64,000 nt of DNA, from contig NZ_JAIHOM010000003.1 of assembly GCF_026130165.1 (NCBI RefSeq), forward strand, positions 1-64,000, in the 5' to 3' direction. How positions within the stretch are numbered: position 1 is the first letter of the stretch; the number at the start of each line of letters is the position of its first letter. Shown here piece by piece: positions 98-47,529 of the stretch. The stretch is from Spirulina subsalsa FACHB-351 (GTDB lineage Bacteria; Cyanobacteriota; Cyanobacteriia; Cyanobacteriales; Spirulinaceae). A program made the translations under genes and the position numbers. The notes under the pieces were generated by a model. It saw only the letters and a program-made list of their open reading frames with translations, searched no databases and was not told the origin of the DNA.

Positions 98-2347
98 CTA
101 GCGTAACCCAACCTCCTGCACAAAAGACTCTAAACCCCTTCGGGGAGTCCACTGTACCGCGCCCACTTCCCCGGTGAGGTAAAAGGGAATCTGGAGTTGT
201 TTGAGTTGGGCGTGAGTTTCGGAGTCTAGGAAAGTCTGGGATAAAATGACCGCTTTGGGTTGGACTTGAGCTAAAACCTTTGGGAGAAGATTGCGCTGAC
301 GCAGCCTTCCGTAGGAATCGCCCCAAATTAACACATCACTTTCTGGGAGTTGCCCGAGGTTATCGGTTGCCCCCATCATCAGTAACCAGCGTAGGGAACC
401 GACTTTAAACTGTAACCCAGTGGGTTCAAGGGATAACACCTGCAAGGTGAGGGAGTCTAATTGTAAGCGTTGTCCGATTTGGAGGGGGGTAAAGCGACCT
501 AATTTAAGCTGCTCTAATAGGGTTTCTTGGTTCTGTGAGCTATGAAAGAGGTTGCGCACCTTTAAACTGTCAGAGATTTCTGTCCAGCCCGATTCTAGGG
601 GATTATTAAAGGGGAGGGCAAGGGCAAGGTTAATGTGATTGAGGCCTTGTTCGCGGAAAAAGGGCAGGATGGCATAGTTGGCGGTGTTGTCATTGCCGCC
701 GTGGAGGAGGGTGACTTTATCCTGTTCTTGAATGATAACTACAGGTTGAGGGGAAGTGGCCAGAACAGTCACTTGTAGGAGGGTAGCGTGATTATACCAG
801 AGGGGCAAGATGAGGATAGCCAAGGCACTCCCCCCTACTATCCCCCACCTGCGCCGCCCGATTGGGGAACACCAGATGAACACCCAGGCCCCGTAACAGA
901 GGAGCAGTTGCCAGAGGGCGATTTTCCCGATATTCCAAGTGCTGAGGGGTAAACTTAGCACCCCTTGGACTAGCTGAATTAGGAAACTAAGGGCGGGAGT
1001 TAAGAGGCAAGCGGTGGTGCTGCCCAAGAGGGGGAAAATTAAGCCTAAAGCCCCGCTAATCATGCCGCCCAAACTGATGAAGGAAATCAGGGGGGTGGTG
1101 GTGAGATTGACTAATAAACTGTATAGGGGGAGGGTTTTAAACTGATAGATTAACAGGGGAAATGTCCAGAGGGAGGCGGCAATGGGAACGGCGAGGATGG
1201 TGGCGACTTTGAGGGGGAGAATGTCTAAACGGCGGGTAATGGCGGGTGTTGTGACCAGTAGGCCGAAGGTGGCTAAAAAACTGAGTTGAAAGCCTAAGTC
1301 CCAAATCCAAAGGGGATTGAAGATTAACAGTCCGGTGGCGGTGACGAGTAATAAGCCCAAGGGTTTGACTTGGCGATCGCTCACTAACCCCAATAATACC
1401 CCCAAACCCATCACTACCGCCCGCATTGCCGAGGGTTGCAGCCCCGTTAAACCGAGATAAAATAACAACACCCCGCCCCCCACATAAAACCGCGTTTTTG
1501 CCCCCCAAGCCCGGGTAAACACCAAGACTAAACCCAATAAAAGAGAGACATGAAACCCCGAGGCGGCTAAGGTATGGGCTAATCCTACCCCTAAAAAACT
1601 ATCTCGCAGGGCTGGGGACAAATCCACCGCCCGGCGACCTAGTACCATTGAACTGAGTAAAGACCCCGACTCACTGCCCAACCAACGGACTTGGGAGCGG
1701 ATGATCCTTTGGCGCAGTTGCCACCAGCCCCAAGGCGTTTCCCCCTGTGCAGCCGCCAGACGACCCGTAAACCCGGTAAAAATGCCTTGACGGGCTAAAT
1801 AGGCTTGAAAATCAAAACCCCCCGGATTTTGAGCGGGGGGCGGTGCATAGATGCGTCCGGTGAGGGTGACAGTTTGTTGGGGGACTAAGCCCGTTCCCTG
1901 TAATAGGGGCAGGGTGACATAGACTTTTCCCTGTAAATCGGGATATTGCGCCACCTGTTGGACTTGGAGATTAAAGCGAATGCGGTTGTTGCGATTGGGT
2001 TGGGGTGGGGTGAGAATCTGGCCCGTGAGTTCAATCTGGTTGGGGGGATTGACTAGCAGGGTGCTGATATCTTGGGGGGAAGGGTGGGGGGTGCGCAGTT
2101 GGAGATAAAAAACGGCGATCGCACCCATCAGCCCCGCCAGCAACCAAGCCCCCCAACGGGGTCCAGAACGCCAAACACGGGGCAAGAGGAACGCTCCAAC
2201 TGCCCCCAAGATTAACCAAATCAGGGCTAGGCTTCCCCAGAGTACACTAGGCTGAGAACTGGTGGGCAACAGAGGGCGCAAAAGGCCTGTAGAAACTAGC
2301 CCCAGCCCATAGACCAAACAGATAGTAGCCCAACCCTGTTGATTCAT
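98..2347 (-). CDS. comEC: ComEC/Rec2-family DNA internalisation protein
   Basis: A 749-residue polytopic inner-membrane protein. The N-terminus has three hydrophobic segments followed by an OB-like DUF4131 region (about 75-200). The competence domain (about 215-520) carries the family signature GLAHTLAASGFHV near residues 255-267 and about nine membrane segments. In ComEC the channel passes single-stranded DNA into the cytoplasm during natural transformation, fitting the pilMNOQ operon at 47-53 kb. The C-terminal part (about 525-730) sits where a metallo-beta-lactamase-like domain is expected, but the usual HxHxDH cluster is not visible: the corresponding stretch reads LALALPFNNPLESG. The stop codon lies in a dispersed repeat end. 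The DUF4079 gene is 7 bp upstream, so the two are probably cotranscribed. Confidence 0.9.
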   Translation of the reverse strand: MNQQGWATICLVYGLGLVSTGLLRPLLPTSSQPSVLWGSLALIWLILGAVGAFLLPRVWRSGPRWGAWLLAGLMGAIAVFYLQLRTPHPSPQDISTLLVNPPNQIELTGQILTPPQPNRNNRIRFNLQVQQVAQYPDLQGKVYVTLPLLQGTGLVPQQTVTLTGRIYAPPPAQNPGGFDFQAYLARQGIFTGFTGRLAAAQGETPWGWWQLRQRIIRSQVRWLGSESGSLLSSMVLGRRAVDLSPALRDSFLGVGLAHTLAASGFHVSLLLGLVLVFTRAWGAKTRFYVGGGVLLFYLGLTGLQPSAMRAVVMGLGVLLGLVSDRQVKPLGLLLVTATGLLIFNPLWIWDLGFQLSFLATFGLLVTTPAITRRLDILPLKVATILAVPIAASLWTFPLLIYQFKTLPLYSLLVNLTTTPLISFISLGGMISGALGLIFPLLGSTTACLLTPALSFLIQLVQGVLSLPLSTWNIGKIALWQLLLCYGAWVFIWCSPIGRRRWGIVGGSALAILILPLWYNHATLLQVTVLATSPQPVVIIQEQDKVTLLHGGNDNTANYAILPFFREQGLNHINLALALPFNNPLESGWTEISDSLKVRNLFHSSQNQETLLEQLKLGRFTPLQIGQRLQLDSLTLQVLSLEPTGLQFKVGSLRWLLMMGATDNLGQLPESDVLIWGDSYGRLRQRNLLPKVLAQVQPKAVILSQTFLDSETHAQLKQLQIPFYLTGEVGAVQWTPRRGLESFVQEVGLR

Positions 2348-9176: not shown

Positions 9177-9300
9177 ACTACCCCACTCAATATCAAAGCC
9201 CATGAGCGCCATTCCGTGAAGTTCTCCCCCGCTAACCCTTCGGGTATAACGGGCTACCCCTGCTGACTTTAGGTTGGCGTTGGGGAGTTTACCTCAACTT
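9174..9300. repeat. Possible miniature IS-derived element
   Basis: GTGAACTACCCCA at 9174-9186 recurs at 10258-10270 (end of a TnpB relic) and, with one base missing, at 14148-14159. An approximately inverted partner TGGGGAGTTTAC closes the stretch at about 9281-9292. The interior (9210-9275) holds GC-rich imperfect hairpins around CCCTTCGGG. Coding capacity is nil. A small non-autonomous relative of the local TnpB elements is the simplest reading, but boundaries are uncertain. Confidence 0.35.
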
Positions 9301-10134
9301 CATGGACGAAAGAGTTTTCAAATCAGGAGGATTGGCAAACCCTTGACGGGCTGCCTCAATAAAATTCTGGACTCGAATGGGATCAATGGGTTCGGTAATC
9401 TTACCCTGACGCTTGAGGGAACTGGCTACAATGACCCCATCGGCGGCTTGTAGCAAGGTTCCGACATTATCCCAATCGGCCCCACTGCCAATAAAGACTG
9501 GAGTTCCTTTCGCTGCACTACAGGCTAACTCCAAATCCTCTAAATTGGGGGGGCTCCCTGTTGCCCAGCCTGACAGAATCACTCCATCGGCCAAGCCTCG
9601 TTCAATGGTATCTTGTACCGCCGTGGTTAAGTTGGGGGTGCCTAAAGGTCGAGCGTGTTTCACTAACACATCGGCCAAAATACAGACCTCACTCCCTAAC
9701 TCTCGGCGATAGCGTAGTAATTCATGGGCGCGACCCTCAATTAGACCTTGATCTGTGGCCATCACGCCTGTTAACACATTAACCCGAATGAATTGGCACT
9801 GACATACCGATGCGATCGCCATTGCACTCAGGGCATCATTCCGCAACACATTAATCCCCACCGGAAGCATCACTAAATTTTGAATCCGTTGGGTAATCAA
9901 CGTCATAGCACTCACCACCGCCGGATTCACATTATCCTTAGTAAAGGGAGCATCAAAGAAGTTTTCTATAATAATGCCATCAACCCCGCCCGCCGCTAAA
10001 GCAGTAGCCTCTTGTTCTGCACGGTCAATCACCTCCCGCAAATTTCCACCCCAACGAGCAGAACTCGGAAGGGGCAAGAGATGAACCACGCCAATGACTG
10101 GGTTTCGGGTTTGGAAAATCTGTGTTAAGTCCAC
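9289..10134 (-). CDS. btpA: BtpA family photosystem I biogenesis protein
   Basis: A 281-residue TIM-barrel protein of the BtpA/SgcQ family. In Synechocystis, BtpA is a thylakoid-associated factor needed for accumulation of the photosystem I reaction-centre proteins. Typical features seen are PVIGVVHLLPLPSSARWGG at the N-terminus, GGVDGIIIENFFDAPF (about 49-64), the central strand PVGINVLRNDA, and GTPVFIGSGADWDN near the phosphate-binding end. Length is normal and the frame intact. It stands alone between transposon remnants. The start is ATG after a short AT-rich leader. Confidence 0.93.
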   Translation of the reverse strand: MDLTQIFQTRNPVIGVVHLLPLPSSARWGGNLREVIDRAEQEATALAAGGVDGIIIENFFDAPFTKDNVNPAVVSAMTLITQRIQNLVMLPVGINVLRNDALSAMAIASVCQCQFIRVNVLTGVMATDQGLIEGRAHELLRYRRELGSEVCILADVLVKHARPLGTPNLTTAVQDTIERGLADGVILSGWATGSPPNLEDLELACSAAKGTPVFIGSGADWDNVGTLLQAADGVIVASSLKRQGKITEPIDPIRVQNFIEAARQGFANPPDLKTLSSMKLR

Positions 10135-24769: not shown

Positions 24770-25795
24770 ATGACCTCACTCGTTCCCTTGACTTTTATTG
24801 ACCTTTTCGCAGGAATTGGCGGGATGCGTCTAGGGTTTGAGTATCATAGCGCCCAATGTGTTTTTTCCTCGGAATGGGATGCTTTTGCTCAACAAACTTA
24901 TCAAGCGAACTTCGGCGAAATTCCTCAAGGGGATATCACCCAAATCAGACCGGAAGATATCCCGAATCATGATATTTTGTTGGCGGGTTTCCCTTGTCAA
25001 GCTTTTAGTATTTGTGGGGATCAGAAGGGTTTTTTTGATACGCGAGGGACGTTGTTTTTTAACATTGAAGAAATCTTAAAGGTCAAGCAACCTGCTGCCT
25101 TTTTGTTAGAAAACGTCAAAAATTTAAAGTCTCATGATCAGGGTAGAACGTTTAAAACGATTCTCGATCATTTAAAAAATTTGGGCTATTTTATCCATCA
25201 TAGGGTTTTAAATTCTCTAGATTTTGGTGTTCCCCAAAAGCGAGAACGGACTTTTATTGTGGGGTTTAAAGAAAATTTGCGATTTTCTTTTCCCAAACCT
25301 CTAGGTATTCGTCCCCAACTTCAGGATATTTTAGAACCAGAGAGCCAAGTTGATCCTCAATATTTTTTGTCGGAAGAGATTAAACAAAAACGACTGGCAA
25401 AGGTTAAACCCAATTACCCGATTCCTTCCATTTGGCATGAAAACAAAAGCGGTAATATTTCGGCGTTAGAATACTCTTGTGCTTTACGTGCGGGGGCTTC
25501 TTATAATTATTTGGTGGTCAATGGGGTGAGAAGACCTACAGCGCGGGAATTGCTGAGATTACAGGGCTTTCCTGATAGTTTTAAGGTTGTTGTTCCCTAT
25601 TCCCAACTTAGAAAGCAAGTCGGAAATAGTGTGACTATTCCGGTTATTCAGTCCATTGCCAGTGAAATGGTTAAAAGTCTGAAGAGTCAACCCAAAGTTG
25701 CCACATTTATGGGACTTGACAAAATGCACACAAGCTTAACTTGTCAAGGTTGCTATCCTATATTCGACCATAACGGGCGATCGCATCATCACTAG
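24770..25795 (+). CDS. DNA (cytosine-5-)-methyltransferase, solitary
   Basis: A 341-residue C5 methyltransferase. Motif I FAGIGGMRLGFE (about 10-21), motif IV GFPCQAFS with the catalytic Cys (about 72-79), motif VI LLENVKN (about 112-118), motif VIII QKRERTFIVGF (about 155-165), a short target-recognition region (about 170-255), motif IX RPTARELLRLQGFP and motif X QVGNSVTIPV (about 283-292) are all intact. No restriction endonuclease is adjacent, so it may be an orphan acting on a common motif such as CGATCG in HIP1 (inference). The last 25 or so codons read through a hairpin repeat copy (25719-25755), an atypical tail, and overlap the convergent dipeptidase gene. Confidence 0.93.
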   Translation: MTSLVPLTFIDLFAGIGGMRLGFEYHSAQCVFSSEWDAFAQQTYQANFGEIPQGDITQIRPEDIPNHDILLAGFPCQAFSICGDQKGFFDTRGTLFFNIEEILKVKQPAAFLLENVKNLKSHDQGRTFKTILDHLKNLGYFIHHRVLNSLDFGVPQKRERTFIVGFKENLRFSFPKPLGIRPQLQDILEPESQVDPQYFLSEEIKQKRLAKVKPNYPIPSIWHENKSGNISALEYSCALRAGASYNYLVVNGVRRPTARELLRLQGFPDSFKVVVPYSQLRKQVGNSVTIPVIQSIASEMVKSLKSQPKVATFMGLDKMHTSLTCQGCYPIFDHNGRSHHH

Positions 25796-37135: not shown

Positions 37136-37385
37136 ATTGCCCAAGACCTGTTCCTCAACTCTGCAAATAATTATGGCAAAAATTTAAGAATTATTGCACT
37201 TAAACAACTGTCATGTTGTTAAAATTATCCCCTAAAAGCGCGCCAAACTAGGGATTATAGGCACTTGTAGCCCTTCGTTCTGCCCATTGAAGGATGAAAC
37301 AGGAAATTCCCCTATCTGAGAAAATGCTTTAGCAATGCAGGCCAAAAAATCGGGTCGCATTCAACCTACTGGAGGCAGAGATTCT

Positions 37386-38912
37386 ATGAAATTGGCTTAT
37401 TGGATGTATGCGGGACCAGCCCATATCGGCACCCTGCGGATTGCAAGTTCTTTTAAAAATGTTCATGCCATTATGCACGCCCCTTTAGGGGATGATTATT
37501 TTAATGTTATGCGTTCGATGTTGGAACGAGAGCGCGATTTTACTCCAGTAACGGCCAGTGTGGTAGATCGGAATGTCTTAGCGCGGGGATCTCAAGAAAA
37601 GGTCGTTGATAACATCACCCGGAAAGATCGCGAAGAATCACCAGATTTAATTGTTCTCACCCCCACTTGTACCTCCAGCATCTTACAAGAAGATTTACAA
37701 AACTTTGTAGATCGCGCTCAACTCGATGCGCGGGGGGATGTACTGTTAGCGGATGTAAACCATTATCGGGTGAACGAATTGCAAGCAGGCGATCGCACCC
37801 TACAACAAATTGTCCAGTTTTACCTCGAAAAAGCCCGCAAAAAAGGGGACTTACCCACCGAGAAAACCGCCAAACCCAGCGTTAATATTATCGGGATTTC
37901 CACCCTCGGATTCCACAATCAACACGACTGCACCGAATTAAAACGCCTCATGTCCGACTTAGGCATTGAAGTCAACGAAGTTATCCCCGAAGGTGCCAGC
38001 GTTCACAACCTCAAAAACCTTCCCCAAGCGTGGTTTAACCTCGTCCCCTATCGGGAATTAGGCTTAATGACCGCCCAATACTTAGAACAAGAGTTCGGGA
38101 TGCCCTGTGTAGATATTACCCCGATGGGAGTAGTAGAAACAGCCCGGTGTATTCGCAAAATTCAACAGCTACTCAATGCACAAGGGGCGGGGGTAGACTA
38201 TGAAGAGTATATTGACCATCAAACGCGCCATGTCTCCCAGGCCGCTTGGTTTTCCCGTTCCATCGACTGCCAAAACCTCACCGGGAAAAAGGCCGTCGTG
38301 TTTGGGGATAACACCCACGCCGCCGCGATGACCAAGATTTTAGCGCGGGAGATGGGGATTCATGTAGTCCTAGCGGGGACTTATTGCAAGTATGATGCTG
38401 ACTGGTTTAAAGCCCAGGTGAGCGAATATTGTGACGAGGTACTGATTAGTGATGATAACGGAGCGATTGGGGATGCGATCGCCCGTTTGGAGCCTGCCGC
38501 CATCTTCGGCACCCAAATGGAACGTCATATCGGCAAACGTTTAAACATCCCCTGCGGAGTCATTGCCGCCCCCATTCACATCCAAAACTTCCCCATTGGC
38601 TACCGTCCTTTCCTCGGCTACGAAGGCACAAATCAAGTCGCCGATTTAGTCTACAATTCCTTTACCTTGGGCATGGAAGATCATCTCTTAGAAATCTTTG
38701 GGGGTCATGATACTAAAGAAGTGATCACTAAAGGAATGTCCGCCGATTCTGATTTGAATTGGACCAAAGAAGCCCAAGCGACCTTAAATCAAGTCCCCGG
38801 TTTTGTACGCGGTAAAGTCAAGCGCAATACAGAAAAATTCGCCCGTGAACGAGGTTTAAGTGAGATCAGCCTAGAAGTGTTCTATGCCGCTAAAGAAGCC
38901 GTAGGCGCTTAA
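37386..38912 (+). CDS. chlB: Light-independent protochlorophyllide reductase subunit B
   Basis: A 508-residue ChlB, part of the nitrogenase-like dark protochlorophyllide reductase with ChlN and ChlL. I use ATG 37386, giving the canonical N-terminus [77 protein letters not shown]; the frame extends 17 codons upstream without family character. The cluster-liganding Asp/Cys region ([14 protein letters not shown]) and the C-terminal domain are complete. chlN and chlL are not in the window. An AAATCGGGTTT-type hairpin follows the stop. Confidence 0.97.
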
Positions 38913-39298
38913 CTTTTAACCGCTAATCTGGTTCAAAAATCCTTGCACCAGAAACCCGATTTCTTGACCGTTATTCGTCATCCGTTCACCTGACCGATTA
39001 CTAATAATCGGTGAGAAATCGGGTTTTTCTCCCAAGATATAAAGCAACATCTCCAAGCTGTATAAGCCCTTGCTTTTCAGTAAAACTACGCAACCCTAAC
39101 TATAATATAGCTATTCCTAATGAGACGTGAACTCTGGGCTATTGTCCTATGTCGATTCCAGGCGAGCCTTTTTTGCACGACTCAGATAGGTTCGCTATAT
39201 TACACAAATATTACAAAAAATAAAGTTTGACTTGACAACCCAACGCAATCTTAGGGATAAGTAGAAAAATTCATCCATCCCACTAGACTTTAAGCGTC
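38913..39298. other. Spacer between chlB and the 39-kb gene pair
   Basis: 386 bp. It begins with a nested terminator-like hairpin (38952-39026). The remainder (39100-39298) is AT-rich and probably contains the promoter for the pair. TTGACTTGACAACC at 39227-39240 holds a TTGACA-like -35, but no good -10 at the right spacing. No small gene seen. Confidence 0.5.
38952..39026 (+). terminator. Nested hairpin downstream of chlB
   Basis: Outer arms AAACCCGATTTCT (38952-38964) and AGAAATCGGGTTT (39014-39026) pair perfectly. Inside, ACCGATTA/TAATCGGT (38993-39000 with 39005-39012) forms a second stem with a 4-base loop. A T-run (TTT) and C/T tract follow, suggesting termination. It belongs to the AAACCCG hairpin family. 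Confidence 0.6.
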
Positions 39299-42200
39299 AT
39301 GGTCAATCAACTCAGAGAAAATAACAATGATCTGCCTACCGTAGATTATAAGGACTTACTGACACAGATTATTGACACACTGCAAACCTCATCAGGACCC
39401 TATTTTAGCATTATTGAAAAAACAGTTGAAAACAAATCTAACAAAACTGGAACATCCGATCAATCCGAAAAAAAATCCTATCAACGTTTTATTTTAGATA
39501 TTGATCAAATTGCTACAACTGTCTCTCAAAAACCAATCCCCAATCCATTAAGTCGTATTGGTTATCATAAAATAACAACCCTTAACCTAGTCGCAGAATG
39601 CCAAGAACAATTTCCCAGCCAGATTAGGCAAATCCAGCAACTTCTTCAAAACCTACTACAAAACGCTGTCAAACAATATTTACAAAAACAGAGAAAATCA
39701 CCCCTTCCTCTTCCAGAATTTATCAAGCAGTTAATTGTCAATTTGTCAAGTTTTGACCAGAGCAAAGCTACAGCTAATTTTAACTATCCTTTCAGCACCC
39801 CTAACCAACTGTACAAGCAGCGATTAACTCTTGATAATCAATCCACCCGAGAAAAATGTTTGCGCTTTCACAAGTTAACCATTCGCGTCAATCATGGGAC
39901 AAACTTTGACGAGCAAGTTAAAGAGGGAATTTTCAACTATTTAGACCAAAATTTTAACAACTACTCTGCACAGGAGCAAGAGGAATTAGAGGAGATTGTT
40001 GACGACTTATATAATAAACGGCAAGAACCGAACAATGATTTTTCTAAACTGAAGAAAATCATTAATCAAGAGACATTAGGTAAATTAAAACGCAAAACTC
40101 AGATTTTTTATCTCCAGTTTTTGTTAGACCAATATTATCAGAACAGAAAAGAAGAAACCGAGGAAGAAGGAGCAATTTATTTACAAACTTTAATTCGACG
40201 ACTCCAGTATATTGATGAATTTATAAATTTAGAGCATTACGCTGACGGTGATTATGAAATTACGCACTCCAAGGGCAGCATTAATTACCGAGATATATTT
40301 GCTCGTGAAGATGCCTTTAAGGAATTGCCTGTTATCCCCCTGATTGTCGGAAATCTAGGGGAATCTCGTCTAGATGGAGCCATTGAATTTACACTGGGTC
40401 TAAAACTTAAGCTCAATGGAGATGTTAACACATCTGAAGGTGAATCTTCTTTTCAGTATTACCTTGATTTGTTCAATCCTGATAGTTCACTTCATCAAGA
40501 AACCCTCAAAAAACGATTTGGTTTGCAAAGAATCCTCAAAGTTGCTTTGCTTTATTTCTTTGTCTTTGCTTGTGACAATCCTAATGAACCAGATTATCAC
40601 CCAATTAAGGATCTAAACTATAATCCCATTGAAAAATTCGAGTCAAATATTTTACCCGCTTTCCGAATATCTGAAACGGATATGTTCGCTATGTTAGTGA
40701 AAATTCGTAAAGGTTTGATTGGTTATAAAGTCGAAGAAAAAATCAATAAACTTGTTGGTTTTCTTAAAAAGGTAATTGACTATAAAACTCTAGCAAAACC
40801 CCAAGAAAAGCCAGCCTATCTGACCTTAAAAAACCGTCTACTGAAAGACAACCTCCGAGAAATCATTGACGAACAAACAGTATTTGATAAATCGGTGACA
40901 GGTAATCCTAAGTTAGCGTTGAAATATATAGATGTTACTGAAGCACGATCTCAAGAAAATACCTTTTTGAGTATTCCTGTCACCCTGATTATTGGTGATT
41001 TGCACTATTTTTTAACTCAAGACAAGCAATCTTTCAAGATGCAGTATGACATTGAACCTGTTAAAGCGTTACCTATCATTTTCTATGTGAAGAATCATCC
41101 AGCATCTGCTCAATACTATGAAAATCAATTCAACAAACGGAATTGCTTAGTTTTCCCCCATCAACAAGCAAAACCCAGTGAGACAGAGAACTTTTTCTAT
41201 AACTTCACTTTTTCGCTCCTGACTTTCACTACTTTAAGTATTTTGCTCAAAAAAGAACGCTTATTTTTACCCCTTTTACGTCTAGATATTGAAAAAGGTG
41301 ATAGTGCGGGATTGCGCGAGAAGTTTATGTATAACTTCTCTAAAGTTTTAGCACATTTATTAAATGAACAACATCGTTCTAATGCACAGGGGATTGATGT
41401 TCGTTCTCCCAACTCTTATAAGGTTCTCAATGCCATGAGTTCCCTATATTCTGTGCTACCCAAAACCTTTACCCTTCCTCAGCTAACACAACTAGATAAA
41501 CTGGCAATTATTATTGTCTCTAGTCGTGAACATGATCGGAGTTGGAAACCGGAGATTAAGCAGAAATATTCTACCCTTATGGGGGAAGTGGTAGGCATCC
41601 TGCGGGAACCTAATAATACAATCAAGTATCGTCTCATTCAGACCTTTTCTGCCAATTATGATCGGGAGACATTATTCACACAACCTATTGTCATGGCTGA
41701 TGTTATTCAAAAGTTATATCGTCAAGGATATCGACATATTATTTATATTGCCAAAGCACCCTACACCAGCACCTTACATTTAACCCAAAATCAAGATGAT
41801 GAGGACTTATTCTTTATGTCTAAGGATATCATGCGGTTACTCAAGGGACAGTATCAGGATTTAAATATCTACCCCATGTTTTTCGACAAATACTATGTAG
41901 TCCCCTTGGAAAAACTAGCCCAATCCCTTTATATTGAAGATACAGCAGAACTGACTCGTTTAGCTGAAGATGACAATAAAATGTTTGCTGTTTTCTTCAA
42001 CCTATTTAATGGTCAAGCCGTAAGAGAAGTCAATCGAACCTATCGAGGAGTGATTTCCTACAGCACCTTGTTGAATTTTTATGAGGGAATTCTAGGAGAT
42101 CAAAAAATTCGGCAAGGATTAATTGATGCAGGACAACTTAAGCAAGATATCTTACAGTATCTAACACTGTTTCACTTTGCCAAATATGAGAAAGGGGGTA

Positions 42201-42355
42201 AAAAGCTCCAGTTAAAACTTGACCCCTATGAGAATTTAATCGGAGATAAGTCGGTGAGTAAGTTAGCGTTAATTCCCCATGCTAACGAAAAGGTTGAGTT
42301 CAATGTTTTGGCTTTTTTAACTCGCGTTCAAGAAATTTTACACACCAAACAGTAA
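39299..42355 (+). CDS. Large protein of unknown function; possible PIWI/RNase H-like C-terminus
   Basis: A 1018-residue soluble protein I cannot assign to a named family. The N-terminal 500 residues are Lys/Gln/Asn/Leu-rich and mostly helical, with an acidic E-rich stretch (about 223-292). Residues about 540-720 look alpha/beta. The C-terminus (about 728-935) has alternating strands and helices: LAIIIVSSREHD (about 731-742), RHIIYIAKAPYTSTLHL (about 812-828), LFFMSKDI, IYPMFFDKYYVV (about 857-868), YRGVISYSTLLNFYEG (about 915-930). That order resembles an RNase H/PIWI-like fold, but the catalytic tetrad is not evident. The stop lies 2 bp before the start of the helicase gene, so the two form an operon. 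Codon use is AT-richer than the neighbours, and no HIP1 octamer was seen in this gene, hinting at acquisition. Confidence 0.6.
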   Translation: MVNQLRENNNDLPTVDYKDLLTQIIDTLQTSSGPYFSIIEKTVENKSNKTGTSDQSEKKSYQRFILDIDQIATTVSQKPIPNPLSRIGYHKITTLNLVAECQEQFPSQIRQIQQLLQNLLQNAVKQYLQKQRKSPLPLPEFIKQLIVNLSSFDQSKATANFNYPFSTPNQLYKQRLTLDNQSTREKCLRFHKLTIRVNHGTNFDEQVKEGIFNYLDQNFNNYSAQEQEELEEIVDDLYNKRQEPNNDFSKLKKIINQETLGKLKRKTQIFYLQFLLDQYYQNRKEETEEEGAIYLQTLIRRLQYIDEFINLEHYADGDYEITHSKGSINYRDIFAREDAFKELPVIPLIVGNLGESRLDGAIEFTLGLKLKLNGDVNTSEGESSFQYYLDLFNPDSSLHQETLKKRFGLQRILKVALLYFFVFACDNPNEPDYHPIKDLNYNPIEKFESNILPAFRISETDMFAMLVKIRKGLIGYKVEEKINKLVGFLKKVIDYKTLAKPQEKPAYLTLKNRLLKDNLREIIDEQTVFDKSVTGNPKLALKYIDVTEARSQENTFLSIPVTLIIGDLHYFLTQDKQSFKMQYDIEPVKALPIIFYVKNHPASAQYYENQFNKRNCLVFPHQQAKPSETENFFYNFTFSLLTFTTLSILLKKERLFLPLLRLDIEKGDSAGLREKFMYNFSKVLAHLLNEQHRSNAQGIDVRSPNSYKVLNAMSSLYSVLPKTFTLPQLTQLDKLAIIIVSSREHDRSWKPEIKQKYSTLMGEVVGILREPNNTIKYRLIQTFSANYDRETLFTQPIVMADVIQKLYRQGYRHIIYIAKAPYTSTLHLTQNQDDEDLFFMSKDIMRLLKGQYQDLNIYPMFFDKYYVVPLEKLAQSLYIEDTAELTRLAEDDNKMFAVFFNLFNGQAVREVNRTYRGVISYSTLLNFYEGILGDQKIRQGLIDAGQLKQDILQYLTLFHFAKYEKGGKKLQLKLDPYENLIGDKSVSKLALIPHANEKVEFNVLAFLTRVQEILHTKQ

Positions 42356-42357
42356 TC

Positions 42358-45300
42358 ATGATGAAATCAGAAATTTCTGCGGATTTAGGCCGTTTATTTG
42401 AAGTTGGCTTTAATTTAGGGTTGTTAACGGGCATCAAGCAGTCTAAGGTACAACATTCCTATGGAAATTTGTATCAAAAAGACTTGCAAAATATCCGATT
42501 TTCTGAGATGGCGAAAACCTTATTAAGTCAAGTCACCAGTCCTCAAGAAAAAAGGGTTTTAGAAAAGTGGAGTCAGTTCTTTTTGTTACGAGGTTTTTTA
42601 GCGGGGTTAAATTTTTGGCGAGAGTATCTGGAATTTGTTTTTCCGGGGGAAAGTTCAAGGGTGGAGGTGGTTTATTTGCAATGTTGTTTTAGGGGAGACA
42701 ATAGTTTAGGACAAAATCGCAAGGAGGGGGACAGTTGGGAACGAGATGTTTTGCAACAGTTTCCTAATCTTTCTTCGGTGGATTCTATTATTGCACGCTA
42801 CAAACAAGGAGGACAGTTTCTCAAGGCAGATACTCTGTTATTGTTGCGCTTAAATAGGAGACAGGTTAAGTATAGACTGGTGTGTGTTGATTTATCTGCT
42901 TTTGTTGCTCAGTTTGCTCCTGAAGGGGAAGATTTAGGTTTTATTCGGATTATCAAGAATTTATTGTGGCGAGAGATTAATCATTTTCGCTCTAAGAGTG
43001 TGTTTGCTCAGTTACGACTGGATACCAGTTGCTTAGACTACTCATTATCACAGGCTTTGCGCAGTTATTTCAATGCGTTTTACTCTTCTGATAAGGAGAT
43101 GGTGAAGTTAATTCAAGCTGGGGGATATGCTTACAGTTTTTATCAATTTCTCTGCGAGAGGGAAATTATTAATCCAGAGGATGGGAAAACCTCAATTCTC
43201 TTTAATATTATTGGATATACCAATCGTGGACTCTCTTCTGTTTGCGTGAATCCCCAACAACAGGAAAGTCAGGAATTTTTAGCCACTTGCCAGAAGATTT
43301 ATCAAGAATACGAAAGAGATCAGGGGATTGATGAGACTCGGGAGCGTGTGTTAAATAAGATTAAACGGAGTGTGTCGCGCAGTTTTGAGGGGGGGAGGGA
43401 TTTTGTTAATCAACTCCTGAGTATTACTCCGAATCAGAGGACTTGTATAGAACATCAAGAAATCATTACAGGATTTGCTAATTCTGTGGGGGAGGTGTCT
43501 CCTGAGTTGCGGGAGAAACTGGGATTGGGGGAGGGGATAAATCTACAAGATGCCCATCAGGAGTTAGTGATGCGATCGCTTTCTCCCGACAATTCCCGTC
43601 CTTTCCTCTTCCTGACGGGGAATCCGGGAATTGGGAAAACCACCGCGATCGCCAAATTCCTACAAAATCATGCCGACGAGGGGTTTTTATTCCTCTATGC
43701 CAGTCCTCGGAAACAGGTCAATCTCGATATCCTAGAGAAGTTCAAAAAGCGCCACACTCAGCAACTCTTTCAGGATGGGGTGTTTACCCTTAACTCCCAC
43801 GCCAACCTGATTAAAAACAACTCTGGCCGCCCTACCATTCAATATCAGTCTAATACACACCAAGAACATTTTCAACAATCCGGTATTGATTTTAAGGATA
43901 GTCGGATTCCAGAGAGTAGCAGAAACCGTCAAATTCCCCTAGAACGTCTTGATCAAAAGACCATTACTCCAGCCGAAAAATCTTCAGCAGGAGTCTTGCA
44001 GAGTGTTGCTAAAGCTATAACTGTATTAATCAATGAAAACATTTCTCATCAAATTGTGGCTACCGTTTCCATCCAATCTCTTAAACAAACTCGTCAAGGG
44101 GATACATTAGACCATTTGCAGGAAATCTTTAAAAATGCTTACCAGGAACGCGACCGAAAAATTTTGCCCGATAAAATGCAGAATATCTCCCGCAAACTCA
44201 AACATCTAATTATTATGATTGATGAAATTACGGGAGATGATACGGGAGTTGCTTTTTTACAACGCATTGAAGAATTTATCCGTAAATATAAATTAACCGA
44301 TCCCCAGTATGGCTTTAACTGCAAAGTGATCATTGCCGATGCGTCTTTAGTCGATGCCTCGGTAATTAATAAACACTTAGAAAAAATTGAACCAGAACCG
44401 GATAAAATTTACTTCAGACATTGCCAAACTCCCCCTGAAGCCATTTCCCTAAAAAGTTTCCAATTCAAACATCATCCCGCTACTCTGATCAATACCAATG
44501 CTTACCCAGCCAAACGTTTAACCATCACCTATAAAGTTTTTGTTCAATCCTATGCGTCTCAGGAGTCTGACAGCTTGCGTAGACAATATGAAAAGCAACT
44601 CGAAAAACAAGAAACCGACCGAATTTTTTCCGATGTGCAAACCTTGTTAGCCAATCCCCAAGTTGAACAGATTATTGTTTATATCCAAAATAAAAGTAAA
44701 CTGACCATCCTGATTGACCAATTAACCCAAAGCTTACCTAAATTTAGCAAAGGAGAAGACTATTTAGAAGTTCATGGCGACATTTCAGAATGGGAAAAAC
44801 AGCAACTTGAGCAATATAAAAATCAAGTCCGCGTGATTTTCATGACATCCTCTGGGAGTCGAGGTCTATCCTTCCCTAAAGCGAGACATATTCTAGTTGA
44901 AATCCCTCGCTTTGCCATTGAAAAAAACCTGATGGAAATTATCCAAGTCATTTATCGAGGTCGGGGAGATCGAGAGATTGATCAACAGGATAAGTTTTTA
45001 ACATTTTACCTGACAGAACGAGCCGTTTATTATAAAGAAGATGTAAAAAGTTCCTTGCAGAAAAGTATTTTAAACCTGTTTAATATTCTACTCTTACTCA
45101 AAGCTGCGATTTTAACCCGAATTCAGGGAGTGAGTCCGATTGGTAGTGATCAATTTTTAATCATTCCCATTGGGGGAAAATCCATGAGTGCAGCCGGACA
45201 AACCTTTTCTAATCAATTGGCTAGTTTAGTTCAGAGATTGCAAAAAGAAACCGCTAAAAATCCCAAGGATACTGTTCTTAAAGAGATTTTAGAGCAGTTA

Positions 45301-46041
45301 GAACCATTATTGGCGGCAACTGATTTTAGGCTGCATCAGAACAATGAGATCCCTAGCTTATCCCATGATATTGCTCAAAACTCCCTGTCGTACCTCCAGT
45401 TAAATCAAGATTTTACCCAGCAGTTTCTTAAACCGTTGCAGGGTAAAACTTTAGATCATTTACTCCAGTTTAATCATCTCGAATTAAGCTATTTAACGGG
45501 TAGTTTATTAATTGTTCCGTTAGCAGAAAAAAGGCTTGAAGAGACGTATTTATTGCGCCTAAATAACATTCTAAAATATCAAGATGGTCACTTACTAGAA
45601 TTGATGAAAAAAGTCAGTTTCCGTCCCCAATATCCAGATGAGTTAAAAGAGCAGATAGTCAATGCTATCCAGTTAATTGAAGCGGTGAGAGACTCGGAAC
45701 GCTCCCAACAATTTCAACAATTCAGTCAACGTTTAGAACGATATTATGCTATTCCCCTTTTCGTCTTTATTGTGGGTGATATTTTGCGAGAATTTTTTGA
45801 GCAAAAGCAAGAACAAGCAAAAGAAGATTCATTTCGGGAAATTTTAGCTCAATATGTCCGGTCAATCTATCCCGTTGATTCTAATATTTTACCGATTGGC
45901 TATCAGTATGAAGAATTTCCTTTTGTCGTGTTTCACAGTTGTAGTTTGAAAGAAATCCGTCAACAGGCTTTCTCAGAACAATACTTACTAAACTCTCCGA
46001 CGTTAAATGTTTTGAACTTAATTTTATCAAAACCTGATTAA
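42358..46041 (+). CDS. Large SF2-like helicase/NTPase with long N-terminal region
   Basis: A 1227-residue protein translationally coupled to the preceding gene. Helicase motifs: Walker A FLTGNPGIGKTTAIAKF (about 417-433), motif Ia-like LYASPRKQVNLDILEKF, Walker B LIIMIDEITGDD (about 616-627), motif IV-like QIIVYIQNKSKLTIL (about 780), motif V VRVIFMTSSGSRGLSFPKARHILVEIP (about 823-850), motif VI QVIYRGRGDRE (about 862-872). DEIT replaces the classical DEAH/DEAD. The N-terminal 400 residues hold KADTLLLLRL...YRLVCVDLS (about 156-180), reminiscent of a PD-(D/E)XK strand pair, unproven. The C-terminal 300 residues have no obvious domain. Two HIP1 octamers lie near 43571-43652. Confidence 0.75.
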   Translation: MMKSEISADLGRLFEVGFNLGLLTGIKQSKVQHSYGNLYQKDLQNIRFSEMAKTLLSQVTSPQEKRVLEKWSQFFLLRGFLAGLNFWREYLEFVFPGESSRVEVVYLQCCFRGDNSLGQNRKEGDSWERDVLQQFPNLSSVDSIIARYKQGGQFLKADTLLLLRLNRRQVKYRLVCVDLSAFVAQFAPEGEDLGFIRIIKNLLWREINHFRSKSVFAQLRLDTSCLDYSLSQALRSYFNAFYSSDKEMVKLIQAGGYAYSFYQFLCEREIINPEDGKTSILFNIIGYTNRGLSSVCVNPQQQESQEFLATCQKIYQEYERDQGIDETRERVLNKIKRSVSRSFEGGRDFVNQLLSITPNQRTCIEHQEIITGFANSVGEVSPELREKLGLGEGINLQDAHQELVMRSLSPDNSRPFLFLTGNPGIGKTTAIAKFLQNHADEGFLFLYASPRKQVNLDILEKFKKRHTQQLFQDGVFTLNSHANLIKNNSGRPTIQYQSNTHQEHFQQSGIDFKDSRIPESSRNRQIPLERLDQKTITPAEKSSAGVLQSVAKAITVLINENISHQIVATVSIQSLKQTRQGDTLDHLQEIFKNAYQERDRKILPDKMQNISRKLKHLIIMIDEITGDDTGVAFLQRIEEFIRKYKLTDPQYGFNCKVIIADASLVDASVINKHLEKIEPEPDKIYFRHCQTPPEAISLKSFQFKHHPATLINTNAYPAKRLTITYKVFVQSYASQESDSLRRQYEKQLEKQETDRIFSDVQTLLANPQVEQIIVYIQNKSKLTILIDQLTQSLPKFSKGEDYLEVHGDISEWEKQQLEQYKNQVRVIFMTSSGSRGLSFPKARHILVEIPRFAIEKNLMEIIQVIYRGRGDREIDQQDKFLTFYLTERAVYYKEDVKSSLQKSILNLFNILLLLKAAILTRIQGVSPIGSDQFLIIPIGGKSMSAAGQTFSNQLASLVQRLQKETAKNPKDTVLKEILEQLEPLLAATDFRLHQNNEIPSLSHDIAQNSLSYLQLNQDFTQQFLKPLQGKTLDHLLQFNHLELSYLTGSLLIVPLAEKRLEETYLLRLNNILKYQDGHLLELMKKVSFRPQYPDELKEQIVNAIQLIEAVRDSERSQQFQQFSQRLERYYAIPLFVFIVGDILREFFEQKQEQAKEDSFREILAQYVRSIYPVDSNILPIGYQYEEFPFVVFHSCSLKEIRQQAFSEQYLLNSPTLNVLNLILSKPD

Positions 46042-46110: not shown

Positions 46111-47394
46111 TTAACTTTGGGCTTGGTCCCACTGTTGAGCAGCATCAGCCAGCGCTTGTTCTACAGTTTTTTGCCCTAACATCGCCGCCTGTAAGTTTTC
46201 ATAAATTGCCCTTTGCAACACATTCAAATTGTCCATGACGGGGATTAACACCTCAGCATCCTGTAACTGTTTCGCCCCCACTAAAACCGCCTCCTCTTGG
46301 GGTGACAACTCACTAGAGCTTTCCAATACCTCAATAAATTCCGCCACCGCTTCCTGAGTCGAGGGCAACACCTTCGCCTCTTGGGCAAACGCTAACTGGT
46401 TTTGACTATTGGTGACAAACAGAGCAAACTTAACCGCTTCTTCCGGGTGTCGGGTGGTGCGGGGAATGGTTAAATTCATCACCGCCACATTCTTCTTGCC
46501 CGTCTCCCCCGTGATTTCCGGTGCAACTCCCGAGACTTGAGCAATATCCGGCGCATTGGTGGCGATCGCATTTAAAAACTGTGGTCCCGTCGCCACCAGC
46601 GCCGCCTCCCCCGTTTGATACAGGTCTATACCATAACGATGCCCCCTTGTCAAGATTTCCGGCGGTAATAATCCCTCCCGATAGAGATTAACCCAGTATT
46701 CAAACGCCGCCACCCCTTCAGGACTATTAAACGCCGCCTTCCCCGACTCATCCACCAACATCACCCCCATTTTGACCAAAGACTCCAAAACCGCCCCCGA
46801 ATCTTCAGGAATCAGAGTCACAAACAGCGTAAACTTACCCGTCCTATCCTTCACCTGACGCGCCACCCTAGCCAAGTCCTCATAGGTTTGGGGCGGATTC
46901 TCAATCCCCGCCGCCTCCAACAGCGCCCGATTATAAATCGTCACCTGAGTCGTTAAATACCAAGGCAGACCAAACGTCTTCCCATTCAGCGTGCTAGCCT
47001 GCCAAATCTTCGGTAAATACAGCCGTTGGTCATCCTCAGACAATTGTTCATCCAAATTCAGCCAAGCCTCACGACTCGCCAACTGAGAGGCAAACTTGGG
47101 ATTCAAGTTCACCACATCCGGAGCCGTATTGGCCGCCACCGAGGTGAGAATTTTACTCTCCATCGCCTCCCAAGGCACATCCACCCAGCGCACCTTAACC
47201 CCCGGATTTTCCGCCTCAAACTCCTCAATCAACCCCTCAAAATAGGCCGTAAATTGGGGTTGGAGTTGCATCGTCCAGAACTCAATCTCCGTTCCCGACG
47301 TAGCCGCCGGACGGGAACAACTCACTAACCAACTGACCCCAATCCCCAACAGGGCAAACAGCCCCAAACGAAACCATTTCGACCATTTATTCAT
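46111..47394 (-). CDS. ABC transporter sugar-type substrate-binding lipoprotein
   Basis: A 427-residue extracytoplasmic protein of the bacterial extracellular solute-binding family 1 (COG1653). I use the ATG at 47394 because MNKWSKWFRLGLFALLGIGVSWLVSC has a proper lipoprotein signal with the lipobox LVSC; the longer frame from 47472 adds 26 acidic residues. The domain has EFWTMQLQPQFTAYFEGLIEEFEAENPGVKVRWVDVPWEAM, ...DVVNLNPKFASQLASREAWLNLDEQL and ...TFGLPWYLTTQVTIYNRALLEAAG. The ligand is probably a carbohydrate. No permease or ATPase genes are adjacent. Confidence 0.9.
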   Translation of the reverse strand: MNKWSKWFRLGLFALLGIGVSWLVSCSRPAATSGTEIEFWTMQLQPQFTAYFEGLIEEFEAENPGVKVRWVDVPWEAMESKILTSVAANTAPDVVNLNPKFASQLASREAWLNLDEQLSEDDQRLYLPKIWQASTLNGKTFGLPWYLTTQVTIYNRALLEAAGIENPPQTYEDLARVARQVKDRTGKFTLFVTLIPEDSGAVLESLVKMGVMLVDESGKAAFNSPEGVAAFEYWVNLYREGLLPPEILTRGHRYGIDLYQTGEAALVATGPQFLNAIATNAPDIAQVSGVAPEITGETGKKNVAVMNLTIPRTTRHPEEAVKFALFVTNSQNQLAFAQEAKVLPSTQEAVAEFIEVLESSSELSPQEEAVLVGAKQLQDAEVLIPVMDNLNVLQRAIYENLQAAMLGQKTVEQALADAAQQWDQAQS

Positions 47395-47529
47395 AAAATC
47401 GCCTTCCAATTGACTTCCGTCCAGAGAAAAATCTTCCCAGTCCAGCCATTCTAGGCTAGATTTGAGTAGCATTAGAGAAAAGCCCCTCTAGGCATTCATC
47501 CAGCTTCAAGCTCAACGACCAAAACACCT

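What the first reader, a model, noticed from the sequence alone, without database searches (positions are those of the whole stretch)
39299..46041. Two-gene island: large unknown protein plus SF2-like helicase
Two very large genes (1018 and 1227 codons) sit 2 bp apart, forming an operon bounded by hairpins. The second encodes a helicase with a DEIT Walker B and motif VI QVIYRGRG; the first has no recognisable family. Their AT-rich codon use in a GC-mixed neighbourhood, large size and coupling are typical of accessory nucleic-acid-acting modules such as defence systems. A PIWI-like protein next to a helicase is known in the pPIWI-RE conflict modules (Burroughs, Iyer and Aravind), but I do not see their third gene, the REase, and no motif match is claimed.
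Basis: partly seen in the sequence, partly recalled or inferred. Interest (0 to 1): 0.75.

Follow-up and report, generated by a model that had tools for sequence, protein, structure and literature searches.

The report
Hidden Argonaute paired with helicase-nuclease
Two large neighbouring genes that looked like nothing known appear to encode a disguised Argonaute-like protein and a helicase fused to a likely DNA-cutting domain, a pair found in a minority of cyanobacteria and on plasmids of several bacterial groups that probably destroys foreign DNA.

Summary
In detail: genes A (39299-42355, 1018 aa) and B (42358-46041, 1227 aa) are 2 bp apart and the most AT-rich of 38 ORFs compared. No sequence family covers A. 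Its AlphaFold model (pLDDT 86) matches Argonaute/Piwi structures (Foldseek E 9e-6; VIA Z 11.6): A is a deeply diverged Argonaute-fold protein with a MID-PIWI half, an invariant Gln-Gly (77 of 77 relatives) and no acid at the expected second catalytic position. B is an SF2 helicase behind an N-terminal domain with the order and invariant residues of a PD-(D/E)xK nuclease, except that the usual Lys is Ser.
All 44 cyanobacterial genomes with A (of 386) also have B. The pair is patchy, its trees agree (r 0.994), it sits on six conjugative cyanobacterial plasmids and recurs in Chloroflexota and Proteobacteria. Best reading: an Argonaute-directed helicase-nuclease system against foreign DNA that works like DdmDE and ApsAB, with the nuclease at the opposite end; sequence kinship to them could not be tested directly. 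It fails defining features of pPIWI-RE. Guide binding, nuclease activity and defence are inferred, not shown. New variant of a known kind.

The parts
39299..42355 (+). Gene A: Argonaute-fold protein, 1018 aa
   Evidence: ORF; AlphaFold model pLDDT 86.3, pTM 0.85; Foldseek top hits are Argonautes; VIA Z 11.6 to Piwi
39818..40975 (+). Gene A aa 174-559: N-terminal lobe; structural alignments to many full-length Argonautes start at aa 174; domain borders approximate
   Evidence: model ranges 174..1012; DSSP
41144..41473 (+). Gene A aa 616-725: MID-like domain (alternating strands and helices)
   Evidence: DSSP; within matches to short chains such as SPARTA and AfAgo (model 568..1012 and 578..1005)
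41387..41392 (+). Gene A Q697-G698: Gln-Gly in the MID-like domain, at the place expected for 5'-guide-end binding (equivalence inferred)
   Evidence: Q and G invariant in 77 of 77; QG is part of the published ApsB motif
41498..42343 (+). Gene A aa 734-1015: PIWI-like RNase H fold (three strands, helix, strand, helix, strands); K/Q/H/A where the second catalytic Asp is expected
   Evidence: DSSP; column counts at aa 734-760 and 810-830
42358..46041 (+). Gene B: nuclease-like domain plus SF2 helicase, 1227 aa
   Evidence: ORF; model of aa 1-1200 pLDDT 81.9
42358..43257 (+). Gene B aa 1-300: N-terminal PD-(D/E)xK-like domain; fold not tested on its own
   Evidence: DSSP; invariant E15, D158, S180, K246, K250, Q253, Y257 in A11 (18 sequences) and in the 77-row alignment (S180 in 76)
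42829..42831 (+). Gene B D158: candidate first catalytic acid
   Evidence: 77 of 77
42889..42897 (+). Gene B D178-L-S180: candidate (D/E)xK position with Ser in place of Lys
   Evidence: position 178: D 64, E 13 of 77; position 180: S 76, T 1 of 77
43093..43128 (+). Gene B K246...K250..Q253xxxY257: candidate relocated lysine and RecB/Cas4-like QxxxY motif (motif name recalled)
   Evidence: all four 77 of 77
43525..45177 (+). Gene B aa 390-940: SF2 helicase core
   Evidence: Pfam Helicase_C; VIA Z 14.8, rmsd 4.0, 389 aligned, to Brr2 6qws
43618..43644 (+). Helicase motif I, GNPGIGKTT
   Evidence: G421 and P423 to T428 77 of 77; N422 and T429 75 of 77
44221..44232 (+). Helicase motif II, DEIT
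   Evidence: D622, E623 77 of 77
44944..44967 (+). Helicase motif VI, QVIYRGRG
   Evidence: Q863, Y866, R867, R869, G870 77 of 77
45178..46038 (+). Gene B aa 941-1227: C-terminal extension, no known family; last 27 aa not in the model
   Evidence: Y1184, P1188, N1217 conserved in 76 of 77 each
38952..39026 (.). Imperfect inverted repeat between chlB and gene A
   Evidence: arms 34 nt, 76% complementary

Best explanation
A two-protein system against foreign DNA. Gene A is a strongly diverged Argonaute-superfamily protein that seems to have lost the second acidic residue of the RNase H active site and so probably does not cut by itself; it would hold a short nucleic-acid guide by its 5' end in the MID pocket and find a matching invader (plasmid, or replicating or transcribed foreign DNA). 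It then recruits gene B, an SF2 helicase that loads on the opened DNA and moves along it, while B's N-terminal PD-(D/E)xK-like domain cuts. Supported by computation here: A has the Argonaute MID-PIWI fold (predicted model); B is a helicase with an extra N-terminal domain that has strictly conserved nuclease-type residues; the two genes are inherited as a unit, patchy and also plasmid-borne. Inferred: guide binding, loss of slicing, nuclease activity of B, recruitment, and defence as the purpose. Estimated separately: A is an Argonaute-superfamily protein 0.93; B N-domain is a PD-(D/E)xK-fold nuclease 0.65; A binds a guide 0.65; defence against mobile DNA 0.7.
For: Fold of A: the six Foldseek hits with E <= 0.001 are all from Argonaute-type entries (AaAgo 2f8s 9.1e-6, TtAgo twice, RsAgo, human Ago2, SPARDA); VIA Z 11.6 EfPiwi (rmsd 4.5, 333 aligned), 11.3 MpAgo (rmsd 5.7, 406 aligned), 11.2 chain D of yeast CKM (Med13 according to PMC12477606, passages), 10.9 SPARTA. 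Among predicted viral proteins no match reaches E 0.001. B: SF2 helicase with an N-domain in which D158, K246, K250, Q253 and Y257 are 77 of 77 and position 178 is acidic in 77 of 77. Coupling: A always with B (44 of 44 genomes); A, or a piece of it, on the same strand upstream of a B in 70 of the 80 loci kept, in 12 of 12 distant cyanobacterial loci and in 4 of 4 proteobacterial plasmid loci; tree distances correlate r 0.994 (0.955 in 61 close-clade pairs; best of 500 shuffles 0.253). Mobility: the 6 plasmids on which tblastn finds A are all typed conjugative; a plasmid copy and a Fischerella copy of B differ by 0.03. Hand-picked neighbours in the outer clades include type I restriction, Hma-type, DUF4011/MTES and DUF2357/PDDEXK_7 proteins. 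Published analogues work this way: DdmDE (PMC12409362, passages) and ApsAB (PMC11096173, section 11).
Against: No guide, cleavage or defence phenotype is shown. Many copies sit beside housekeeping genes rather than in an obvious defence island: a PurQ homologue is within three genes in 17 of the 80 loci, a YciI-like gene in 19 (names from sequence). The genes next to the pair in this window are chlB and a sugar-binding protein. The third PD-(D/E)xK residue, normally Lys, is Ser, so the domain could be a binding relic. The N-domain of B was never folded or searched alone; Pfam and PDB profile searches gave nothing convincing. The MID Tyr-x3-Lys of ApsB is not conserved here (position 678 is Ala in 32 of 64, position 682 Lys in 45 of 64). 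D746 (D 73, N 4 of 77) lies near the end of the first PIWI strand, so a remnant active site cannot be wholly excluded. Some loci have the genes apart: 15 of 70 pairs by more than 250 bp, one by 5.7 kb; in G142 they lie on different contigs. The agreement of the trees could come from shared descent alone, and 11 of 48 well-supported A splits conflict with a B split.
Confidence: 0.6

Rival explanations
1. A direct but very diverged member of the DdmDE/ApsAB family rather than an independent lineage; the domains were permuted in one branch.
For: Same two-gene logic, Argonaute-like protein plus fused helicase and nuclease; ApsAB-like systems are reported in some cyanobacteria (the supplement listing them was not read, so this pair might be among them); the QG of the ApsB MID motif is invariant in A.
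Against: ApsA and DdmD carry the nuclease at the C-terminus, B at the N-terminus. ApsA motif VI is QAVGRVER and its motifs I and VI lie about 920 aa apart, against QVIYRGRG and about 440 aa in B. ApsB is said to lack the RNase H fold of PIWI, which A has. By sequence A matches no PDB chain convincingly, and B only generic helicases at best (SMUBP-2 E 1.2e-4, MSS116 7e-4). The ApsA, ApsB, DdmD and DdmE sequences themselves could not be fetched.
Confidence: 0.2
2. A variant of the pPIWI-RE system in which the REase has been fused to the helicase.
For: Same three ingredients: PIWI fold, SF2 helicase, REase-like domain.
Against: No Arg column reaches 93% in the PIWI half and E964 is E in 64, Q in 10, D in 3 of 77; no DinG-type cysteines in the helicase core; order A then B; PF13032 misses it. 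hhalign to pPIWI-RE gives a probability under 1%, but the control (Argonaute against pPIWI-RE) fails as well, so this is uninformative.
Confidence: 0.07
3. A DNA repair or replication helper (Argonaute-like clamp with a helicase-nuclease) without a primary defence role.
For: Recurrent sites next to purQ or next to a YciI-like gene in related genomes (17 and 19 of 80 loci); a PIWI-RE mutant of Pseudomonas stutzeri is reported to be more sensitive to ciprofloxacin (PMC10991935, passages).
Against: B is absent from 333 of 386 cyanobacterial genomes; the genes are broken in several (G063, G319; L085, L120), tandemly duplicated (L126, L132, L199) and carried by conjugative plasmids.
Confidence: 0.12
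4. A plasmid-versus-plasmid competition or maintenance module: the pair is mainly an exclusion system of plasmids that also lodges in chromosomes.
For: The six plasmids on which tblastn finds A are typed conjugative; four proteobacterial plasmids also carry the pair; no B in 50,697 phage records nor among the candidates of one IMG/VR scan.
Against: Many copies lie beside housekeeping genes. The four proteobacterial plasmids are typed non-mobilizable (three) or mobilizable (one), not conjugative.
Confidence: 0.25

Closest known systems
DdmDE (DNA defence module of Vibrio cholerae)
   Same: Two-gene operon: catalytically inactive long Argonaute protein (DdmE, at first without discernible domains) plus one protein with SF2 helicase and PD-(D/E)xK nuclease (DdmD); acts on plasmids (PMC12409362, passages).
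   Different: DdmD has the helicase N-terminal and the nuclease C-terminal; here the nuclease-like domain is N-terminal and its (D/E)xK Lys is Ser. The Ddm sequences could not be fetched, so sequence kinship is untested.
ApsAB (E. coli ST38 antiplasmid system)
   Same: Argonaute-like protein plus helicase-nuclease, plasmid destabilisation, QG in the MID motif; ApsAB-like systems reported in some cyanobacteria (PMC11096173, section 11).
   Different: ApsB lacks the RNase H fold of PIWI, A has it; ApsA has a C-terminal nuclease with DVK, a different motif VI and very different motif spacing. Sequences not compared.
pPIWI-RE three-gene system
   Same: PIWI-fold protein, SF2 helicase and restriction-endonuclease-type domain encoded together (PMC3702460, abstract and passages).
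   Different: Two genes, not three; helicase not of DinG type; the family-defining Arg is absent and the Glu is not invariant.
Classical prokaryotic Argonautes (long and short, SPARTA/SPARDA)
   Same: MID-PIWI fold.
   Different: A is not detected by the Pfam Piwi model; second active-site acid absent; the partner is a helicase-nuclease.
Med13 (MedPIWI)
   Same: A PIWI-fold protein that lacks the first and second catalytic residues; its chain scores Z 11.2 against A.
   Different: Eukaryotic Mediator subunit, no helicase partner in one operon.

Membership tests
Argonaute/PIWI superfamily (fold) | MID and RNase H-like PIWI domains in one chain | tested here: met
   Model pLDDT 86.3; Foldseek E 9.1e-6 and probability 1.00 to AaAgo; the 50 VIA entries shown have Z 10.4-11.6 and are, by title, nearly all Argonaute or Piwi
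Argonaute/PIWI superfamily (sequence family PF02171) | Match to the Pfam Piwi model | tested here: not met
   No Piwi match for A nor in the genome G000
Catalytically active Argonaute | DEDX catalytic tetrad | tested here: not met
   Strand and loop HIIYIAKAPY (aa 813-822): position 819 is Q 32, K 31, A 1 of 64 in A6 and H 8, K 6, Q 3, A 1 of 18 in A2. Position inferred from secondary structure, not from a residue-level superposition
pPIWI-RE | Absolutely conserved Arg and Glu in the PIWI sheet extension | tested here: not met
   No Arg column reaches 93% in aa 734-1018; E964 is E 64, Q 10, D 3 of 77
pPIWI-RE | Operon order REase, DinG helicase, pPIWI-RE | tested here: not met
   A then B in 70 pairs and 16 outer loci
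pPIWI-RE | DinG-type iron-binding cysteines in the helicase | tested here: not met
   Cys columns of 80% or more in B: only 109 and 311, outside the helicase core
pPIWI-RE | Extra helix after the first three PIWI strands | tested here: inconclusive
   Only a one-turn helix (aa 789-792) before the main helix 797-808 in the model
DdmDE | Argonaute-like protein and fused helicase-nuclease in one two-gene operon | tested here: inconclusive
   Argonaute fold, helicase and operon met; the nuclease part rests on motif and secondary structure only
DdmDE | PD-(D/E)xK nuclease at the C-terminus of the helicase protein | tested here: not met
   The candidate nuclease is N-terminal, aa 1-300
DdmDE | DNA guides and plasmid elimination | not testable with these tools
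   needs biochemistry
ApsAB | MID motif Y-x3-K...QG...K | tested here: inconclusive
   QG 77 of 77; Y678 and K682 present in the window protein, but across A6 position 678 is A in 32 of 64 and 682 is K in 45 of 64
ApsAB | ApsA helicase motifs (GFGKS, DELH, SAT, QAVGRVER) and C-terminal DVK nuclease | tested here: not met
   B has GNPGIGKTT, DEIT and QVIYRGRG with different spacing and an N-terminal nuclease-like domain
PD-(D/E)xK superfamily (B aa 1-300) | helix-strand-strand-strand-helix-strand core with acid, acid-x-Lys | tested here: inconclusive
   Order of elements (with further helices between) and acids present, Lys replaced by Ser; fold not searched on its own; no Pfam or convincing PDB profile match
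SF2 helicase | Walker A, DExx and motif VI in two RecA-like domains | tested here: met

The most novel reading that the evidence does not exclude
A previously unrecognised deep branch of the Argonaute superfamily, invisible to the sequence models tried, that together with its own helicase forms an independent third design of guided DNA destruction: the nuclease sits in front of the helicase and uses a restriction-type site with a relocated lysine (D...D/E-x-S...K...K..QxxxY). It spread between Cyanobacteria, Chloroflexota and Proteobacteria, in part on plasmids, and in some cyanobacteria one B stands between two diverged A proteins (A-B-A arrays, 46-47% identity between the As), suggesting two guide loaders sharing one effector.
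Probability: 0.4. Interest if true: 0.8.

Novelty: new variant of a known kind. Interest (0 to 1): 0.62.

Why it matters
Argonaute-fold proteins that the common sequence models cannot see imply that the census of guided defence systems is incomplete; this one is found in roughly one in eight of the cyanobacterial genomes searched and on conjugative plasmids. If the mechanism holds, it is a further solution to recruiting a helicase-nuclease with an Argonaute-like sensor, useful for comparing how such machines stay switched off and for explaining why some cyanobacteria resist plasmids. It also makes a concrete prediction about a restriction-type active site without the classical lysine.

Tried and rejected
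Rejected: pPIWI-RE membership (defining Arg/Glu, operon and cysteines absent). Rejected: core housekeeping gene (patchy). Rejected as evidence: hhalign of A against pAgo and pPIWI-RE profiles, because the known pair pAgo against pPIWI-RE scores no better (0.3-0.4%) and reversed controls reach 1.4%. PDB profile searches of the B N-domain and of the A MID-PIWI half gave no convincing match (best E 0.043, TDP-43, and 0.046, an alpha/beta hydrolase). Pfam on ten isolated N-domain and MID-PIWI pieces gave nothing above cut-off. The list of B structural matches (top 50) does not name DdmD, and that of A does not name DdmE; neither absence is evidence. PADLOC on neighbours: 102 close-clade neighbours, hand-selected from the 271 listed, matched 20 families at 1e-8; 107 outer-clade neighbours matched 77 families (25 shown) at 1e-20; 38 window genes matched 73 families at 1e-20 (the 25 shown are methyltransferase-type models, PD-T4-6 and mad6, one member each). 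The numbers are not comparable and members are not named by the tool, so only named examples are used; the ten proteins were hand-picked, and some of them matched nothing (four of ten in PADLOC at 1e-10; three of ten in Pfam at 1e-6). Co-occurrence with canonical Argonautes: of 17 genomes with a Piwi match one, G111, has B; too few to judge. On the 11 plasmid records with B, A was sought by tblastn (6 records) and by profile in the four proteobacterial ones; the Stanieria plasmid has a partial B (53% covered) and was not read further. Literature: the searches listed no paper whose title or abstract start describes this pair; the library holds only openly licensed papers, and the ApsAB paper's supplement, which lists cyanobacterial relatives, was not read.


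Full report
Observation. The window is a cyanobacterial contig (G000:C183). Gene A (39299-42355, 1018 aa) and gene B (42358-46041, 1227 aa) lie on the plus strand 2 nt apart, between chlB (37335-38912) and a sugar-binding lipoprotein gene on the other strand (46111-47472), both named from their sequence. Their GC content (0.361, 0.391) is the lowest of 38 ORFs compared; the other 36 average 0.487, SD 0.040. The hairpins claimed at the borders are only partly there: one imperfect inverted repeat upstream (38952-39026), no terminator-like site at either end.

Gene A by sequence. No Pfam, NCBIfam, PADLOC or PHROGs family and no PDB chain matches A convincingly. Pfam's Piwi model finds nothing in this genome although it matches in 17 of 194 cyanobacterial genomes; the pPIWI-RE RNase H model matches in 6 of 194, again not in this one.

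Gene A by structure. An alignment of the window protein with 63 relatives gave a model with mean pLDDT 86.3 and pTM 0.85. Foldseek against the PDB returned six hits at E <= 0.001, all from Argonaute-type entries: AaAgo 9.1e-6, TtAgo (two entries), RsAgo, human Ago2 and SPARDA. VIA-align gave Z 11.6 (rmsd 4.5, 333 aligned) to a sponge Piwi, 11.3 (5.7, 406) to MpAgo, 11.2 (6.0, 362) to chain D of the yeast Mediator kinase module (Med13 according to PMC12477606, passages) and 10.9 (4.6, 345) to SPARTA; these rows are tied within 1. Short Argonaute chains such as SPARTA's align to model residues 568-1012. The same model found no viral protein at E <= 0.001. The strand and helix order of aa 616-725 is MID-like and that of aa 734-1015 is the RNase H order. 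I had guessed PIWI by eye before the model; the model decides.

Active site and guide pocket. In the alignment of 64 relatives the strand and loop that should hold the second catalytic Asp read HIIYIAKAPY; the key place (819) is Q 32, K 31, A 1, and in an 18-row alignment with the distant clade H 8, K 6, Q 3, A 1. The first strand carries S741 in 64 of 64 where I expect the first Asp, with D746 near its end (73 D, 4 N of 77). I infer that A does not slice; the residue equivalence rests on secondary structure and was not superposed. In the MID domain Q697-G698 are 77 of 77. The published ApsB motif is Y-x3-K...QG...K (PMC11096173 section 11); the window protein has YNFSK and QG in that order, but Y and K vary in the family.

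Gene B. Pfam Helicase_C E 3.3e-8. A profile of B reaches only generic helicases in the PDB (SMUBP-2 1.2e-4, MSS116 7e-4). The model of aa 1-1200 has pLDDT 81.9; the best VIA rows are Z 14.9 (rmsd 4.1, 391 aligned) to an unnamed chain of a human spliceosome and 14.8 (4.0, 389) to Brr2. Motifs I (GNPGIGKTT), II (DEIT) and VI (QVIYRGRG) are nearly invariant in 77 relatives. Before the helicase lies a domain whose main elements, helix 62-94, strands 102-109, 159-165 and 170-180, helix 246-267, strand 278-288, with shorter helices between, follow the order of the PD-(D/E)xK core (recalled). Its conserved polar residues are E15 (77 of 77), E89 (74), D158 (77), acid at 178 (77; D 64, E 13), S180 (76), K246, K250, Q253 and Y257 (77 each), and eleven of its columns are invariant in an 18-row alignment that includes the proteobacterial members. 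QxxxY after the acids recalls RecB and Cas4 nucleases (recalled). The usual Lys is Ser; a lysine from the following helix could replace it. This is a motif and topology argument: the domain was not folded or searched alone, and Pfam and PDB profile searches are negative.

Distribution. Of 386 cyanobacterial genomes drawn evenly from the phylum, 53 have B at E <= 0.001 (three, G074, G371 and G379, only at about 5e-4 to 6e-4) and 44 have A; all 44 with A are among the 53 with B. In the window's own family the figures are 4 of 13 for B and 3 of 13 for A. A second clade shares 23-24% identity with the window protein in B and 13-15% in A; a profile finds A beside B in 12 of 12 of its loci, in L077 as a 344-aa piece. 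A scan of 84,980 species genomes found 229 encoding stretches, of which the best 80 were kept: by title all cyanobacterial except Ktedonobacter robiniae (Chloroflexota, recalled). In those 80 loci A, or a piece of it, lies on the same strand upstream of a B in 70 (several are broken or cut by a contig end, such as L138, L172, L177, L122). Of the other 10, seven have B at or within about 200 nt of a contig end; L124 and L133 have upstream sequence without A; L159 appears to be the stretch of G142:C82, whose A lies on another contig. Distances: 37 of 70 overlap or lie within 30 bp, 55 of 70 within 250 bp, and 15 are further apart, up to 5.7 kb.

Mobility. B occurs on 11 of 72,556 plasmid records, A (by tblastn) on 6; these 6 are cyanobacterial and typed conjugative. 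Four proteobacterial plasmids (Acetobacter, Cupriavidus, two Acinetobacter), typed non-mobilizable (three) or mobilizable (one), carry B at about 24% identity; a profile finds A directly upstream in all four (E 4.5e-27 to 1e-109), and in Acetobacter B is split into two ORFs. Phage records have no B, and an IMG/VR scan of 83 candidate stretches confirmed none. A plasmid copy from Aulosira and a Fischerella copy are 0.03 substitutions apart in B. A and B trees from 77 pairs agree (r 0.994; 0.955 within 61 close-clade pairs; best of 500 shuffles 0.253), though 11 of 48 well-supported A splits conflict with a B split, so partners may occasionally be exchanged; common descent alone also gives agreement.

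Genomic sites. In this genome and its congener G012 the pair follows chlB directly; the downstream neighbours differ. In eight other genomes of the family chlB is not followed by A or B in the stretch read (L304-L311; L307 ends about 0.4 kb past chlB and so says little). Among the 80 named loci a PurQ homologue lies within three genes upstream in 17, a YciI-like gene in 19 and PheT in 13; a peroxiredoxin lies within three genes downstream in 13 and TrpE in 10 (names from sequence), the PurQ type in titles such as Anabaena, Nodularia and Dolichospermum, the YciI type in Microcoleus and Tychonema. A relative without the pair (G031, L293) has another gene between purQ and trpE, and in G042 (L292), also without the pair, the same interval holds a canonical Argonaute. 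In the outer clades hand-picked neighbours include a type I restriction enzyme (L075), Hma-type ATPases (L078, L079), a DUF4011 protein with an MTES nuclease domain (L288) and DUF2357/PDDEXK_7 (L287).

Mechanism. The published models are DdmDE, where a catalytically inactive long Argonaute binds DNA guides and loads an autoinhibited helicase-nuclease onto the displaced strand (PMC12409362, passages), and ApsAB, where both proteins, the helicase site and the MID Lys are needed to destabilise plasmids while the nuclease-site mutation has a partial effect (PMC11096173, section 11 and passages). By anatomy A would be the guided sensor and B the motor and cutter. What differs: the nuclease-like domain is in front of the helicase, its Lys is missing, and A keeps a full PIWI fold. 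pPIWI-RE has the same ingredients (PMC3702460, abstract and passages) but its defining features fail. Whether this is an independent lineage or a remote, permuted branch of the DdmDE/ApsAB stock is open, because their sequences could not be fetched here.

Verdict. It is a hidden Argonaute-fold protein with a helicase-nuclease partner, a new variant of a known kind, most likely a defence against plasmids or other foreign DNA.

Noticed in passing
L292 6318-8609 (G042), between purQ (1632-2306) and trpE (9262-9999): A relative without the pair carries a canonical Argonaute (Pfam Piwi match), preceded by a 273-aa gene, in the purQ-trpE interval that holds the A-B pair in some other genomes.
   Followed up: partly
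L126 511-10683, L132 3957-13668, L199 3969-13659: Tandem arrays A-B-A-B (the last B cut by the contig end) and A-B-A; the two A proteins of one array are only 46-47% identical, so these are old duplicates kept side by side.
   Followed up: partly
L181 5774-7956 (Okeania): Three near-identical copies of the first 60-70 codons of B, spaced 662 bp, stand between A and the full-length B.
   Followed up: no
L085 4787-8137 (G273): An in-frame remnant that joins the front of A to the back of B in one reading frame of about 1116 aa.
   Followed up: no
window 24770-25795: An apparently lone cytosine-type DNA methyltransferase gene (PCQ motif); probable source of the PADLOC methyltransferase matches in the window.
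   Followed up: no
L188 3789-10744 (Ktedonobacter robiniae): A full-length A-B pair outside cyanobacteria, about 41% identical to the window's B, pointing to transfer between phyla.
   Followed up: partly
L210 (G142): This genome has a pPIWI-RE gene and also the A and B genes, the latter on two different contigs, so the two systems can coexist.
   Followed up: no
window 38952-39026: Imperfect palindrome between chlB and gene A with AAACCCGATTTCT-type arms, possibly a dispersed cyanobacterial repeat.
   Followed up: no
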